NCBI GenBank assembly: GCA_903928345.1 | Contig: CAIYQO010000135.1 | Location: 1-64,000 of the forward strand | Length of the DNA: 64,000 nucleotides | Source of the DNA: an uncultured bacterium | GTDB taxonomy: Bacteria > Armatimonadota > Hebobacteria > CAIYQO01 | Reading direction: 5' to 3' | Shown here: positions 11,116 to 60,343 of the stretch, piece after piece | How positions within the stretch are numbered: the first letter of the stretch is position 1 | Layout: each line of letters opens with the position of its first letter | Program-made: the position numbers and the translations under genes | Notes under the pieces: generated by a model | What the model was told of the DNA's origin: nothing | Databases searched by the model: none | The model's input: the letters and a program-made list of their open reading frames with translations, nothing else

Positions 11116-11244
11116 CCCTGGAGGGACAACGTATTTTAGCCCAGGGCGCGAGCCCTGGGTTTTGCGTTTTTGGGGCGCGGGTGTGCTTCCAACAACGAAA
11201 CCCGGGGCTTGCGCCCCGGGCTAAAACACGCGACCCCTCCGGGG
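11116..11244. repeat. Long imperfect inverted repeat made of two GNRA-capped hairpins, between convergent stops
   Basis: CCCAGGGC-GCGA-GCCCTGGG (11140-11159) and, on the minus strand, CCCGGGGC-GCAA-GCCCCGGG (11201-11220), flanked by TTTTAGCC/GGCTAAAA. Confidence 0.75.
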
Positions 11245-40604: not shown

Positions 40605-42140
40605 ATGCAGACGACGCAGATGACCCTCGCCACCGTGGCGGCCGGGATGGCCGTGCTGGGCTGCCTTCTCGTCCTGCTGCCGTTGCTGCCCGTGTTGGTA
40701 CGCGCGTGGCGCGCACCCGGCGTGCCCGCCACGCTGGGTGTCGGCGCGCTGGCGGTGGTACTGCCCGCGCTGCTCACGTTGCCGGCGGTCAGGCCCTTCG
40801 CGCCCGGGTTTGGGCTGGGAATGGGTCTCCTGCTTGGCGGCGTGCCGGCGTGGCTGGTGTTGGCCGCGGGCAGCGTTCCCCTGCCGCCGGCGCGGATGGG
40901 CGCACTGGCGTTGGCCGCGGCGGCGGTTGGCCCGGCGCTGGCGGCCTGGCGCTTCCACGGCGACCCCGGCGACGTGCTGATGGGCTGTGCGCTGGGCGCA
41001 CTGGCGGTAGCGGTACTCGGTGGCGGCGTCGCGCGCGCGGTGCGAGTTCCCCTCGCGCGAGGGGTTGAAGTGACCGCCGTGGCGAGCAGCCTTGCCGTCG
41101 TCGGCGTGCGGCTGGCGATGGCGCACTTTCCGCGCAGCACCCCCGCCGCGTTGGCCGGGGGCTACTGGGCGGTGCCGCCGCTGCTGCTGGCGGGCGCCGC
41201 GCTGGTGCTGCTGCTTGTCGGCATCCGCGCCGCGCGCCCGTGGGTGGCCGGCATCGCCGGCGCCGCCGCGGTGGTGCTCTTCCTTCTCGTCTTACATCTG
41301 CGCCTGCTGCCGGGGTTGACGTGGTCGGCGCCCGCCGTGGGCGCGGCGGCCTTCCTCGTCGTACTTGGCCTGCTGGCGCGTGAAGAGCGCGACGCCGGCC
41401 CCGCCTTCCGCCCGCGCACGCTCGCCGTCGCGCTGCCGCTGGCCGCGCTCATCACCACCGCCTTCGCCTTCCGTGGGTTGGCCGGGGTCGGGGAGCTGCT
41501 CGCGTTGCTGCCCGCCCTCGTCCTCGTCGCCGCGGTCTATCCGGCACCGAGTGAGGGCGACGAGCCCCTCACCTTTTCCCTCGGCCTGGGCACGCTGACC
41601 CTCTGCGCGCTCTTCGCGTTGACGCGGTTGCTCTTCGAGCGCTACGGGCACGTCTACACGCTGGATTTCCAACGCTACTACGACATCTTCACCCTGCTAC
41701 TCGGCGTCGGGCTCACGCTGGGGATAAATGCCGCCGTGGCGGACACCCCCCCGCGCCCGTGGCCCGCCGCGCTGCGCCTGGGCGGGCTGGGGCTGGCAGC
41801 GGTGGGCGTGCCACTCGGATTGCTGGCGCTGTGGGGGGCGCGTACGCTGTCGGCGCTGCTCACCGGGCTGGCAGTGGGCGAGTTCCTCTGGATGGCGCTG
41901 GCGGCGGGAACGACGGGCGACGACCGCCGGCAGACCCTCGCCGGCGCACCGCACGCCTTGCTCCTCACCATGGCCGTCGCCGCGGTGCAACTGGCGCCGC
42001 GCCTCTTCGTGAAGGAGCTGACCACGTCGAAGAAGATCATCGTCGCCGTGGTGCTCACCGGGGCCGTCGTGCTCTGGGTGGTGGTGGATACGCTGGTACG
42101 CAGCCGGGCGCACAAGGAGGCTCTCCATGCGGCGGAATAA
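40605..42140 (+). CDS. Polytopic membrane protein of unknown function
   Basis: Many hydrophobic helices along 511 aa; SD AAAGGAG before ATG; overlaps the A2M start by 14 bp. Confidence 0.75.
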   Translation: MQTTQMTLATVAAGMAVLGCLLVLLPLLPVLVRAWRAPGVPATLGVGALAVVLPALLTLPAVRPFAPGFGLGMGLLLGGVPAWLVLAAGSVPLPPARMGALALAAAAVGPALAAWRFHGDPGDVLMGCALGALAVAVLGGGVARAVRVPLARGVEVTAVASSLAVVGVRLAMAHFPRSTPAALAGGYWAVPPLLLAGAALVLLLVGIRAARPWVAGIAGAAAVVLFLLVLHLRLLPGLTWSAPAVGAAAFLVVLGLLAREERDAGPAFRPRTLAVALPLAALITTAFAFRGLAGVGELLALLPALVLVAAVYPAPSEGDEPLTFSLGLGTLTLCALFALTRLLFERYGHVYTLDFQRYYDIFTLLLGVGLTLGINAAVADTPPRPWPAALRLGGLGLAAVGVPLGLLALWGARTLSALLTGLAVGEFLWMALAAGTTGDDRRQTLAGAPHALLLTMAVAAVQLAPRLFVKELTTSKKIIVAVVLTGAVVLWVVVDTLVRSRAHKEALHAAE

Positions 42141-45100
42141 CTGGATGCATCTCGGTGTGCTGCTGCTGCTGGTGCTGGGCGGCGGCGCCACCGTCACCAC
42201 GCTGTTGAAAGCGGAAACCCCTTACGGGCGCGTCACCGGCGTGCTGACGATGGCGGAATCCGGCATACCCCTCGCCGGCGTGCGCGTAGAGCTGGATGAG
42301 GACACCAAGCGCGACGATGGCCACGACTACGTGGCGCACACCGACGCACAGGGGCGCTTCACGGTCGAGCACGTGGCAGTGGGCACCTACAAGCTGAGCG
42401 CGCGCACCGACGCCCACGCGGCGCCGGACGTTACCGTCGAGGTGCGCGAGGACACCGTGGCCGACGCTTCCACCGTGCTGAAGCCCGTGCCACCCTTCGT
42501 GAGCCTGGAGAAGCTGGAGCATGTCTACACCACCCGGGAGTCGATCGCGCTGCGCGTGCACGGCTTTGTGCCGGAAAAATCCCTCGAGCTAACCCTTTAC
42601 CGCTTTACCGATAAGGTCGCGGCGAAGGCGTGGAACGGCTGGCTGCCCGCGCACGTTGCCACGGATAACGGCAAAGCCGATCTCGCCGCGCTGGCGCACG
42701 CGTCGTCGCTGCATCGCGTGCGCACCACAACGGTGGCGGTCACCCAGCGCGACGTGGAAGGCGTCTTCCGCCAGGCGCTCACCCTCGGCACACTGCCCGC
42801 GGGCACCTATCTGCTCGCGGCGCAGGCGGGCGTGGTGCGCGACACGGCGTTGGTCGCCGTCACCGACATGGGCATGGTGGTGAAGAACAACGGCAAGCGG
42901 CTGCTCGCCTATACGGTGAGCTTGCTCACGGGGAAGGCGCAACCGGACGTGGCTGTCACCGTGCAATTCGGGGATAACGTGGTCGCGCACCGGAGCACCG
43001 ACGACGAAGGCCTGTGCGACATGCAGACGCCGCACCACGCGGGCGACGACACCATGCTGGTGGTGGGCCGCGACGGGGAGAATATGGCGGTGGCCGCCAC
43101 CTCGGTCAACGGCGACAGTGAAGAGGATGAGCAGGGCAAATCGTTCAACTGTTACACCTACACCGACCGCCCGATCTACCGACCCGGCCACACGGTGTAT
43201 TTCAAATCGATCATGCGGCAGGTCGTCGGCAAGGGGTTTCGTGTGCCCGGCCCGCGCGATGTGACGGTGCAGGTGAGCGATAGTCGTGACAACAGCGTTT
43301 ACCACGACACGCTGCATTCCAACGCCTTCGGCGCGGTGGACGGCGCCTTCCAACTGCCCGACGCCGCGCTGCCCGGCACGTATGGCATCGACCTGACCGT
43401 TGACGGGCAGACGCACAACGCGTACTTCTCGGTGGCGGAGTACCGCAAGCCGGAGTTCGCCGTCACCGTCACCCCGGTGAAGCCGCGTTACAGCCGCGGC
43501 GACGTGCCGGAGTTCACCGTCGACGCAGCGTACTACTTCGGCGCGCCGGTGGGCGGTGCGAAGGTCTCCTACGAAGTCACCCGCGAACCGAGCTGGTACT
43601 ACGAGGAAGCGGACTCCTGGGATGCCGACCTGCCGGACACCGGCACGCCGGGCAGCATGGCGTGGGACGCCGGTGATTATCAAGGCGGGGAGATCGTCAC
43701 CTCCGGCAAGGCGCGGCTGGACGACGCGGGCAAGCTGGTCATCCGTGCAACGCAGGACGAGGAGACGCAAAAGCCGGATCGCGAAGCGCAAAAGCGCCCC
43801 GCCTTGTGGAACGACGACACCATGGACTGGCGCTACACGCTGCACGCCACCGTCACCGACGAGGCGAAGCGCGACGAGGTCGGCGACGGCAGCGTGACGG
43901 TGACGCAGGGGGATTTCCGCCTGCAACTCGGCGCGGATTACCTCGTCAAGCCGGGCGGCGTGGCGGCGGTGAACATCCAGGCGGTCGATTACGACGGCAA
44001 ACCGGTACCCGGCGTGCACGGCGAGGCGACGCTGGAACGGTTGGAGTGGACGCGTCACGCGGAGCAGTCCATCCTCGAAGGTACGCTGCCCTGGACGGCG
44101 GACGCCGCGGGCAAGGCCGTCGTGGGCGTCACCCCGACGCAGGAGGGCAGCTACCGCGTGAAAGTGACTACCCATGATGCACGCGGGCAACGCATCGTCG
44201 CCTCCCAATGGCTGTGGGTGATGAACGACGACGGCGGCGGCTTCGAGTATCCGTATCAAGATCTCGACGTGCGCGCCGACAAACGCATCTACTGCGAAGG
44301 GGACACGGCACGCATCATCATCAATACCAAGCACGTGCATCGGACGGCGCTGCTCACCTTCGAAAGCGGCGACATGCTCACCTACCGCACGTTGACGATC
44401 GACAAGCCTTCCACCATCGTCAAGGTGCCGGTGACGGAGGCGCTGTTGCCGAATATTGCCGTCGGCGTCTGCTTCGTGGACGGCAAGGAGTTCTACCACG
44501 GCGAGGCGACGCTGAATGTCTCCCGCATCTCCAAGGCGCTCAAGGTGTCGGTGACGCCGGCAAAGCCGAGATACGGTCCGGGCGAGGTGGCGGAGTTCCA
44601 CATCAAAACGACCACCCCTAACGGCCGCCCCGCGTCCGCCGAGGTATCCCTTGGCCTCGTGGACGAGGCGATCTACGCTATCGCGCCGGATGACACGGAG
44701 AATATCGTCGCCAACTTCTACCCACGCCGCTACAACCCGGTGCGCACGGTCTTCTCCTTCCCCGACGTTTACATGTCCGGCGATGACAAGGCGGGCTCGA
44801 CCATTCGCACGCGGTCGTACTTCCCCGACACGGCGTATTGGAACCCGGAGATCGTCACCGACGCCGCGGGCGAGGCGACGATCTCCGTGCCGCTGCCCGA
44901 CAACCTCACCACCTGGCGCGCCACCGTGTGCGCCGCGACCCTCGACACGCGGGTGGGGCAGGGGACGGGGTCGATCATCGTCACCAAGCCTTTCCTGGTG
45001 CGCCTGGAGACCCCGCGCTTCCTCACCAGCGGCGACAGTGTGAACATCGCCGTGGTGGCGCACAACAACACCGACAAGCCCCTCACCGCGCAGGTGGGGT

Positions 45101-46887
45101 TGGGCGGTGAGGGCGTGCAGGTGGACGGCGCCGCCGTGCAGCACGTGTCGCTGGCGCCGGGCAAGGCGCAGCGGGTGATCTGGCGCGTGCACGCCGACGC
45201 CGTGGGGCAGATCAAATTGCGCGGCTGGGGGCAGGCGGTGGAGGACGTAAAGCTAGCCGACGCCATGTCCCTTACGCTGCCGGTGAAGCTGAAAGGGCGC
45301 CCGGAAGCGGAATCCCACGCCGGCAAGCTGACCGACACCGCTACGTTGTCCTTCACCACGGCGAAGAATCCGGTACCGGGGAGTAAGACGCTCACCATCC
45401 GCCTCGCGCCGTCGCAGGCTTCCGCTATGCTCGGTGCGCTGGAATACCTGGCGAAATACCCTTATGGTTGCACCGAGCAGACGATGTCCTGCTTCCTGCC
45501 CGACGTGCTGGTGGCGGGGCTGCTGAAACAGGAAGGCGGGGAGAACGCCAAGCTCAGCGCCGAATTGCCGAAGATGGTCAACACCGGCTTGCTGCGTCTA
45601 TACGCCTACCAGCACGACGACGGCGGCTGGGGCTGGTGGGAGCACGACGAGAGCGATGCGTGGATGACCGCCTACGTGGTCTTCGGCCTGCGGCAGGCGC
45701 ACGCCGCCGGCTACCCGGTGACGCCGCGGGTAGAGGAGGAAGCCGTCAAAGCCCTGCGCGACCTCGCCGTGAAGCCCGAGTTGGCGCAAGAGCCGGATAA
45801 GCTGGCCTTCGCGGCGTATGTGCTGGCCCTCGCCGGGGAGGGTGAGGCGGCGCGCACGGCGCTGGCCAATCTGGCCCGCGCGCAAGCCGCTCCCAAGCCG
45901 CCGGAGATGCGCGTTTGGAGCTGGTCGGCGCTGGCGCTGGCCCGGCAACTCCTCGGTCTCGATGCCGGTGACGCGCTGCGCCACGCCTGGGCCGCCTACG
46001 ACGCCGTGCAGGCCGGCCACGCGCCGCGTGATTACTGGTACGACACGTATCAGCTCTCCGACGAGGCGGCGCTGCTCCTCTTCGCCGACACCAATCTTAC
46101 CCCCGCCGACCCGCGCGCGGTGGGGTTGGTGGATACGTTGATGCAGGCGCGCGACGGGAATCACTGGGACTCCACCCGCGCCACTGCCTTCACGCTGCTC
46201 GCCCTCACCAACTACTTTGCCACGAACCACGCGCTGCACCCGAATGAAACGGTGAACGTGGCGGTAAACGGCGCCCACCTGGCCACCGTGCAGTTCACCG
46301 CGGAGGACCTGCTGCGACCCGAGCGCGTGCTGACCGTGCGCGCCGCGGAGTTGGGCACCGTGCCGCCCGTCGTCACGCTGCAACGCACCGGCACGGGTGA
46401 AGTGTATTACACCGCGCTGCTGGAATACACCGAGCAGAGCGGTCTGGACCAACCGGCGGCGGGCACGTCCGACCTGGCGATCTCGCGCGTCTACCGCAAA
46501 TACGAACGGGGCACGCCGAAAACGGGATCGTCGCAGACGCACTTCACATTGGGCGACGTCATCGAGGTGGAGTTGACGATCACCGCGAAGCGCCCCTTCC
46601 GCTACGTGATGATCGAAGACCCGCTGCCCGCCGGCTGCGAAACGCGCGACCGCGGCCCGGTGGAGGACTATGAGTGGGAGTACTGGTGGACGAACGAAAT
46701 CATGCGCGATGATCAGGCGGGCTTCGCCGTGCAATACCTGACGCCCGGCAAGCCACACACGCTGACCTATCACATCCACGCGTCGGCGTCCGGCGACTTC
46801 ACCGCGCTACCGCCGCGCGTCTTCGACATGTACAACCCCGGCGCATGGGCCGCTGGCGCCGCGCAAGCGGTGACGATCGGGGAGTGA
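42127..46887 (+). CDS. Bacterial alpha-2-macroglobulin family protein with intact thioester motif
   Basis: SD AAGGAGG; MG-domain segments YTDRPIYRPGHTVYFKSIMRQ; thioester YPYGCTEQTMSCFLPDVLVAGLL (Cys codon 45469-45471). Confidence 0.96.
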   Translation: MRRNNWMHLGVLLLLVLGGGATVTTLLKAETPYGRVTGVLTMAESGIPLAGVRVELDEDTKRDDGHDYVAHTDAQGRFTVEHVAVGTYKLSARTDAHAAPDVTVEVREDTVADASTVLKPVPPFVSLEKLEHVYTTRESIALRVHGFVPEKSLELTLYRFTDKVAAKAWNGWLPAHVATDNGKADLAALAHASSLHRVRTTTVAVTQRDVEGVFRQALTLGTLPAGTYLLAAQAGVVRDTALVAVTDMGMVVKNNGKRLLAYTVSLLTGKAQPDVAVTVQFGDNVVAHRSTDDEGLCDMQTPHHAGDDTMLVVGRDGENMAVAATSVNGDSEEDEQGKSFNCYTYTDRPIYRPGHTVYFKSIMRQVVGKGFRVPGPRDVTVQVSDSRDNSVYHDTLHSNAFGAVDGAFQLPDAALPGTYGIDLTVDGQTHNAYFSVAEYRKPEFAVTVTPVKPRYSRGDVPEFTVDAAYYFGAPVGGAKVSYEVTREPSWYYEEADSWDADLPDTGTPGSMAWDAGDYQGGEIVTSGKARLDDAGKLVIRATQDEETQKPDREAQKRPALWNDDTMDWRYTLHATVTDEAKRDEVGDGSVTVTQGDFRLQLGADYLVKPGGVAAVNIQAVDYDGKPVPGVHGEATLERLEWTRHAEQSILEGTLPWTADAAGKAVVGVTPTQEGSYRVKVTTHDARGQRIVASQWLWVMNDDGGGFEYPYQDLDVRADKRIYCEGDTARIIINTKHVHRTALLTFESGDMLTYRTLTIDKPSTIVKVPVTEALLPNIAVGVCFVDGKEFYHGEATLNVSRISKALKVSVTPAKPRYGPGEVAEFHIKTTTPNGRPASAEVSLGLVDEAIYAIAPDDTENIVANFYPRRYNPVRTVFSFPDVYMSGDDKAGSTIRTRSYFPDTAYWNPEIVTDAAGEATISVPLPDNLTTWRATVCAATLDTRVGQGTGSIIVTKPFLVRLETPRFLTSGDSVNIAVVAHNNTDKPLTAQVGLGGEGVQVDGAAVQHVSLAPGKAQRVIWRVHADAVGQIKLRGWGQAVEDVKLADAMSLTLPVKLKGRPEAESHAGKLTDTATLSFTTAKNPVPGSKTLTIRLAPSQASAMLGALEYLAKYPYGCTEQTMSCFLPDVLVAGLLKQEGGENAKLSAELPKMVNTGLLRLYAYQHDDGGWGWWEHDESDAWMTAYVVFGLRQAHAAGYPVTPRVEEEAVKALRDLAVKPELAQEPDKLAFAAYVLALAGEGEAARTALANLARAQAAPKPPEMRVWSWSALALARQLLGLDAGDALRHAWAAYDAVQAGHAPRDYWYDTYQLSDEAALLLFADTNLTPADPRAVGLVDTLMQARDGNHWDSTRATAFTLLALTNYFATNHALHPNETVNVAVNGAHLATVQFTAEDLLRPERVLTVRAAELGTVPPVVTLQRTGTGEVYYTALLEYTEQSGLDQPAAGTSDLAISRVYRKYERGTPKTGSSQTHFTLGDVIEVELTITAKRPFRYVMIEDPLPAGCETRDRGPVEDYEWEYWWTNEIMRDDQAGFAVQYLTPGKPHTLTYHIHASASGDFTALPPRVFDMYNPGAWAAGAAQAVTIGE

Positions 46888-46979
46888 GCGAAAAGTCGGG
46901 ACTGCCACCACTTTTCACATGGAACGTGTAATGCCGTGCAAATGTCGACGGAAAAGTGGTGGCTGTCCCGACTTTTCGC
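46888..46979. repeat. REP/MITE-like hairpin element, 29-bp arms with one mismatch, immediately after a stop codon
   Basis: GCGAAAAGTCGGGACTGCCACCACTTTTC (46888-46916) vs reverse complement of 46951-46979. Confidence 0.9.
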
Positions 46980-47007: not shown

Positions 47008-47766
47008 ATGTTCATCGTCCGTATACTCATCGCCGCGATTTTACTCCTCGCCCTTGGCGCCGCGCTCTGGTTGCCGGGGCGCGAGGAGGCGCTGGGCAGC
47101 TATGCCACTTCGCTGAGCGGGCGGACGCGCGGGCAGCATCGCAATGCCCTGCGCGCGGCGGGCGCGGTGGACGGCGTGACGCTGGAGCCCGGCGCCGTCT
47201 TCTCCTTCAATAAAACCGTCGGTTCGTGGACGTCCGAACGCGGCTACGTGCTCGCTCCGGTGAGCTACGACGGCGAGCTGGTGGTCGATTGGGGCGGCGG
47301 CGTCTGCCAAACCTCTACCACGCTGTATAACGCCGCCCTGCTCGCCGGGCTGCAAGTGCTGGAGCGCCACCGGCACAACTGGGCACCGAAATATGTGCCC
47401 CCCGGACGCGATGCCGCCGTGGCGCAATACGACATCGACCTGCGCCTGCGCAACCCCTACCCGTGGCCGGTGTGTCTGCGCAGCGTGTCGACGGCGGAGC
47501 GCATCGGCTTTCAGATTCTCGGGCGCGCGCACGGCCCCATGGCCCGGCTGGCGGACGACACCACCGCGCTGAACCCACCCAGCGAGGTGGTAAAATACGA
47601 CCCGCGCCTCACTCATGGCCGCCGTCGCCTCCTCACCCGCGGCCGCCCCGGCCTTCGCGTCGCCGTCACGCGCCAATACCTCCGCGGCCCCCGCGCCGGC
47701 ACGCGCGAACTCGTCTCCCAGGATGCCTACCCGGTGATGAACACGGTGCTGGCGGTCGGACGGTAG
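47008..47766 (+). CDS. VanW family protein
   Basis: GVTLEPGAVFSFNKTVGSWTSERGYVLAPVSYDGELVVDWGGGVCQTSTTLYNAALLAGLQVLERHRHNWAPKYVPPGRDAAV; start refined to ATG 47008. Confidence 0.93.
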   Translation: MFIVRILIAAILLLALGAALWLPGREEALGSYATSLSGRTRGQHRNALRAAGAVDGVTLEPGAVFSFNKTVGSWTSERGYVLAPVSYDGELVVDWGGGVCQTSTTLYNAALLAGLQVLERHRHNWAPKYVPPGRDAAVAQYDIDLRLRNPYPWPVCLRSVSTAERIGFQILGRAHGPMARLADDTTALNPPSEVVKYDPRLTHGRRRLLTRGRPGLRVAVTRQYLRGPRAGTRELVSQDAYPVMNTVLAVGR

Positions 47767-60252: not shown

Positions 60253-60343
60253 GCGCCAAGTCGGGACAGCGACCACTTTTCCGGGTATCGGGTGCAAGGT
60301 CATTCCCGGGCGGGGAAAAGTGGTGGCAGTCCCGACTTGGCGC
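60253..60343. repeat. REP/MITE-like hairpin element, 30-bp arms with 2 mismatches, immediately after the GH95 stop
   Basis: Arms 60253-60282 and 60314-60343; same family as 46888-46979. Confidence 0.9.

What the first reader, a model, noticed from the sequence alone, without database searches (positions are those of the whole stretch)
46888..46979. Stop-codon-docked hairpin element with one conserved mismatch (copy 1)
The 29-bp arms match 28/29. The element starts at the base after the TGA of the A2M gene. The single mismatch falls at GGGACTG/GGGACAG, the same position and orientation as one of the two mismatches in the copy at 60253-60343. REP/BIME-type elements mobilised by RAYT transposases typically have hairpins with defined irregularities, so a non-autonomous element recognised by a Y1 transposase is plausible.
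Basis: partly seen in the sequence, partly recalled or inferred. Interest (0 to 1): 0.72.

Follow-up and report, generated by a model that had tools for sequence, protein, structure and literature searches.

The report
RAYT-linked hairpin elements with strand-marking mismatch
The hairpin after the alpha-2-macroglobulin gene is one of about 60 copies of a small mobile-type DNA element in this genome, very probably spread by a single-strand transposase whose gene carries the same hairpins on both sides, and nearly every copy keeps one mispaired base that makes its two strands and its two ends distinguishable.

Summary
In detail: 29-bp arms, 28/29 paired, 34-nt loop, starting the base after the TGA. 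About 60 inverted doublets of this arm occur in the genome (control 0), none in 291 other genomes of the phylum. None of 55 doublets lies inside a gene. Stem pairing is kept by compensatory changes and ends sharply after 29 bp. In 51 of 55 copies one inner position stays unpaired, T opposite T (GGGACTG/GGGACAG). A diverged family around a 42%-identical RAYT in another genus has the same mismatch at the same position in 17 of 29. The T arm, rather than the A arm, tends to abut stop codons. In two same-class relatives A2M and VanW overlap (ATGA) with no element: an empty site by gene order. It works like a REPIN but lacks the GTAG tag; its transposase resembles the TIRYT/subclass 2.1 group, reported to lack REPs. 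Shown: family, RAYT linkage, absence at this site in relatives. Inferred: transposition, and the mismatch as strand label. New variant of a known kind.

The parts
46888..46979 (+). REPIN-type doublet, copy 1 (T arm left, A arm right), directly after the A2M stop codon
46888..46916 (+). Left arm (T arm, GGGACTG)
46917..46950 (.). 34-nt spacer/loop, little conserved between copies
46951..46979 (-). Right arm (A arm, GGGACAG on the - strand)
46903..46903 (+). T of the conserved T.T mismatch, left side (GGGACT)
46964..46964 (+). T of the conserved T.T mismatch, right side
60253..60343 (-). REPIN-type doublet, copy 2; T arm abuts the stop codon of the minus-strand GH95 gene
42127..46887 (+). Alpha-2-macroglobulin gene whose stop codon abuts copy 1
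47008..47766 (+). VanW-like gene downstream of copy 1; in two relatives it overlaps A2M (ATGA) with no hairpin

Best explanation
Each hairpin is a REPIN-type non-autonomous mobile element: two inverted copies of a 29-bp repeat around a spacer of about 34 nt, recognised as folded single strands and copied or moved by the RAYT-type Y1/HUH transposase encoded at G000:C208 (L017:1890-2552), which lies between two such elements. Proposed steps: (1) when single-stranded, for example on the lagging-strand template, the element folds; (2) the transposase binds the arms and reads the irregular base: on one strand both arms show T at that place, on the other both show A, so the T.T (or A.A) mismatch tells the strands, and hence left from right end, apart in an otherwise symmetric palindrome; (3) it cuts and joins the element into a new site, often just 3' of a stop codon with the T arm next to it, where insertion between genes is tolerated. 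Shown here: the copy family, RAYT linkage, stem constraint, the conserved mismatch in two genera, intergenic placement with T-arm bias, and a site without the element in relatives. Inferred: steps 1 to 3 themselves. The confidence given is for the REPIN/RAYT reading; for the strand-label role of the mismatch alone it is about 0.45.
For: About 60 doublets in G000, control 0; family found in 1 of 292 genomes of the phylum, the one with this RAYT. RAYT: PF01797 above cut-off; NCBIfam REP_Tyr_transpos 74 bits, just under the cut-off of 80; best PDB profile hit TnpAREP 4er8; HUH (NHLH) and YVERNP motifs intact. Full doublets flank it at L017 1713-1803 and 2552-2639, plus a half repeat before the ATG. 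Compensatory two-sided changes at many stem positions (17 copies at one position), pairing back to chance beyond 10 bases outward. Mismatch kept in 51/55, 27 expected from allele frequencies, P 1e-11. G002, another genus: own diverged family of about 30 doublets flanking a 42%-identical RAYT, same T/A position in 17/29, P 0.012. None of 55 lies inside a predicted gene; T arm within 4 bp of a gene 3' end 14 times, A arm 3. A2M-VanW junctions without element in G013 and G093.
Against: No excision or insertion event was seen and no close strain is held (the genus has one genome). No fixed GTAG tag. Single arms fold only weakly as DNA (-3 to -5.5 kcal/mol). Spacers are barely more alike than shuffled ones in G000, so most copies are old. 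Four of 55 own copies and about 40% of G002's lack the T/A mismatch, so it is not needed for persistence. The T-arm bias rests on a home-made gene caller and on 17 to 28 cases.
Confidence: 0.83

Rival explanations
1. The element is a RAYT-linked REPIN, but the T/A mismatch is a founder relic: the first amplified doublet happened to carry it, and copies inherited it without function.
For: One founder would give the same position and polarity in all copies; A/A is the state of the single TIRs around most other RAYTs of the phylum, so T may be one derived change; homodimers exist in both genomes.
Against: Other stem positions show repeated compensatory changes while this one stays unpaired in 51/55; the same position is unpaired in G002, whose repeat and RAYT have diverged widely.
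Confidence: 0.35
2. The mismatch protects the palindrome from SbcCD-type cleavage or slippage deletion, as suggested for REP heterodimers by Di Nocera et al. (PMC3733652).
For: That paper reports widespread heterodimers and proposes clearance protection; the stem here is otherwise long and nearly perfect.
Against: Any mismatch at any position would serve, yet one position and one mismatch type is kept, and the same one in a second genus.
Confidence: 0.15
3. The hairpins are host regulatory elements at gene ends (terminators or mRNA 3'-end stabilisers), not mobile DNA.
For: Many lie just after stop codons; the RNA fold is very stable.
Against: No terminator-like site was found around copy 1; many copies lie between co-directional genes 11-30 bp before a start codon; the repeat is absent from all other genomes of the phylum and goes with a RAYT gene that has the same flanks.
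Confidence: 0.07
4. Chance hairpins.
For: None found.
Against: About 60 copies against 0 in the control; simulated windows reach at best 7 mismatches.
Confidence: 0.001

Closest known systems
REPINs with RAYTs (Bertels and Rainey 2011, PMC3116915)
   Same: Inverted repeat doublet of about 90-110 bp forming a hairpin, compensatory changes, extragenic, linked to a RAYT gene with the same flanks.
   Different: No fixed GTAG tag; about 60 copies; near-universal T.T mismatch; RAYT apparently of a different subgroup.
TIRtrons / TIRYT and their TIR dimer families, GGGGWSAS motif (Di Nocera 2013, PMC3733652); TnpAY1 subclass 2.1 (PMC6006769)
   Same: Y1 gene bounded by inverted repeats with GGG(G)ACAG; some TIR families form dimers; most other RAYTs of this phylum show the same motif.
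   Different: Most arms here read CGGGACWG; a sizeable REPIN-like doublet population with a conserved heterodimer mismatch; the 2018 survey found no REP-like sequences beside subclass 2.1 genes.
E. coli BIMEs with Y/Z REPs and TnpAREP
   Same: Heterodimeric inverted REPs flanking a TnpAREP gene; irregular bases are read by the enzyme.
   Different: GTAG is required there; here the two arms differ at one base only.
IS200/IS605 family (IS608, ISDra2)
   Same: HUH Y1 fold, strand-specific reading of hairpins through unpaired bases.
   Different: Y motif YVERNP, not Y---Q; the multi-copy unit is the hairpin doublet, not the gene.

Membership tests
REPIN | Two inverted REP units forming one hairpin, repeated in the genome | tested here: met
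   55 doublets analysed, mostly 53-57 between arm cores
REPIN | Each unit has its own imperfect palindromic core | tested here: inconclusive
   Arms fold alone at -3.1 to -5.5 kcal/mol, z -1.4 to -3.3
REPIN | Extragenic location | tested here: met
   0 of 55 inside a predicted gene
REPIN | Cognate RAYT in the genome flanked by the same repeat | tested here: met
   L017; independently G002 L081
REPIN | Excision or transposition intermediates | not testable with these tools
   No reads and no strains held
GTAG-tagged REP superfamily | GTAG/GTRG tetranucleotide at the foot of the palindrome | tested here: not met
   No conserved column outside the stem; GTAA/GTAG/GTGA in 17 of 51 T-arm flanks against 3 A-arm flanks and 5.7 in shuffles, a weak one-sided trend
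TIRtron / TIRYT | Y1 gene bounded by inverted repeats with a GGGGWSAS motif | tested here: inconclusive
   Repeats bound the gene; GGGGACAG only in the AAGTGGGGAC variants, CGGGACAG in most
TnpAY1 subclass 2.1 (Bertels group 1) | NHuH, W[EQ], YIELNP-like motifs, about 238 aa, HTH-like C-terminal domain | tested here: inconclusive
   NHLH, LWQ, YVERNP, 220 aa; no HTH hit in Pfam; no tree with reference sequences made
IS200 (subclass 1.1) | Y---Q motif | tested here: not met
   YVERNP

The most novel reading that the evidence does not exclude
A REPIN population driven by a TIRYT/subclass 2.1 type transposase (a group reported to lack REPs), in which a single T.T mismatch kept across genera is the strand and end label that replaces the GTAG tag and orients insertion with the T arm next to stop codons.
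Probability: 0.3. Interest if true: 0.68.

Novelty: new variant of a known kind. Interest (0 to 1): 0.5.

Why it matters
Why REP dimers are so often heterodimers is stated to have no obvious explanation (PMC3733652). Here the difference is reduced to one base, at the same place in two genera with diverged RAYTs, against a background of compensatory change elsewhere in the stem. That makes the question directly testable with one enzyme and four oligonucleotides (T/A, A/A, T/T, A/T). It also links a REPIN population to a transposase that looks like a group thought to lack one.

Tried and rejected
Rfam: only sub-threshold miRNA-precursor hits that reflect any long hairpin, rejected. Terminator scan negative. 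A GTCG-like tag on the A-arm side: GTCGWT in about 10 right flanks and 0 left flanks, suggestive but not fixed. Literature searches for the arm sequence found nothing. Structure prediction was not requested because the RAYT is not a window protein and its source tool is not on the list allowed for that job. Orientation relative to replication was not tested (318 contigs).

Full report
Observation. It is far beyond chance for the window.

Copy family. The window lies on contig C135 of a 6.06-Mb, 318-contig assembly. The 24-base arm gives 56 forward and 55 reverse matches at up to 3 mismatches, reversed-pattern control 0; a shorter core gives 62 and 64, control 5 and 7. I fetched the regions and paired the arms: 55 intact doublets with flanks, 26 of them with the same inter-arm length and almost all within a few bases of it. 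No other of 292 genomes of the phylum has the arm; only one genome of the genus and four of the family are held.

Anatomy. Pair counts over the 55 copies show a stem of 29 positions: pairing within a copy exceeds pairing between shuffled copies at the variable positions, with up to 17 copies showing two-sided compensatory changes at one position, and falls to the chance level beyond position 10 outward of the GGGAC core. Inside this stem one position is almost never paired: T opposite T (GGGACT versus GGGACA) in 51 of 55; 3 copies are A/A and 1 is T/T. From the allele frequencies 27 heterodimers are expected; P about 1e-11. A T.T mismatch on one strand is an A.A mismatch on the other, so this base alone makes the strands and the two ends distinguishable (direct deduction from the sequence).

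The transposase. Six Y1_Tnp genes pass the cut-off in the genome. One, C208:64889-65548 (P0001, 220 aa), has a complete doublet upstream and downstream and a half repeat just before its ATG. The flanking doublets are mirror images: T arms outward, A arms toward the gene; in G002 they are not mirrored. P0001 has intact HUH (NHLH) and tyrosine (YVERNP) motifs, matches NCBIfam REP_Tyr_transpos at 74 bits (cut-off 80), and its family profile hits TnpAREP 4er8 best in the PDB. A second relative at C49 (43% identical) is bounded by a different repeat, CTAATTAGGGACAGTTACC, with only six matches in the genome.

Independent replicate. In G002, another genus of the family, a 42%-identical RAYT is flanked by doublets of a diverged repeat, AAATGGGGACWGCAACKAATTTC, with 29 and 31 arm matches genome-wide. 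Of 29 doublets 17 carry T/A at the homologous position, 8 are A/A, none T/T. There a second position (CAAC T/G) differs between arms in phase with the first. Most other RAYTs of the phylum with such repeats carry inverted GGG(G)ACAG repeats, A on both sides, so T in one arm looks like the derived state.

Context and site. With a codon-usage gene caller of my own, none of the 55 lies inside a gene; 34 lie between co-directional genes, 11 between convergent, 5 between divergent ones, the rest at contig ends. Where an arm faces a gene 3' end within 4 bp it is the T arm 14 times and the A arm 3; within 20 bp 22 and 6 (P 0.006 and 0.002). GTAA/GTAG/GTGA is enriched in T-arm flanks (17 of 51; A-arm 3; shuffled 5.7). 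For GTAG REPs the literature notes that their ends often supply a TAG stop codon (PMC3733652), so stop-codon docking has a precedent. In two relatives of the same class, G013 and G093, a VanW-like gene recognisable by sequence follows A2M with a 4-base ATGA overlap and no hairpin; here the same pair is parted by the 92-bp element plus 28 bases. This is a site without the element by gene order, and it suggests that the insertion broke a translationally coupled pair (inference).

Comparison. It works like a REPIN. The GTAG tag is absent, so it is not a GTAG REP. The GGG(G)ACAG repeat, the phylum-wide pattern and the protein motifs point to the TIRYT group of Di Nocera, later equated with subclass 2.1, for which a 2018 survey found no REP-like neighbours (PMC6006769). 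Subclass membership was judged by motif only. Published work shows that TnpAREP and IS200/IS605 enzymes read loop or unpaired bases and act on one strand (PMC8266576); the T.T mismatch as a strand label follows by analogy and was not tested.

Noticed in passing
window 11134-11226: A third long hairpin (3 mismatches in 29-bp arms), with GCCCCGGGCTAAAA-type arms, unrelated to this family; looks like another repeat class.
   Followed up: no
L080 (G000:C49:2604-3266): Second RAYT (43% identical) bounded by its own inverted repeat CTAATTAGGGACAGTTACC; six matches genome-wide, including an inverted pair 2.6 kb apart on C234 (10901 and 13480).
   Followed up: partly
A-arm flanks of the own-genome copies: GTCGTT or GTCGAT lies just outside the A arm in about 10 of 55 copies and in no T-arm flank; possible target or end signature.
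   Followed up: partly
G002 doublets (L108-L155): Left flank consensus about TGCCKCC before GAAATGGGG, not matched on the right: a further left-right asymmetry; several copies have a longer spacer (94-117 instead of 57 between arm starts).
   Followed up: partly
L017 4068-4180: Another long hairpin (arms GGGAATGTAAAGTGGAAAATG...) about 1.5 kb downstream of the RAYT, of a different repeat type.
   Followed up: no
G001:C58:9273-9782: RAYT relative split across two frames with an inner TGA, near an intact copy about 2.2 kb away.
   Followed up: no
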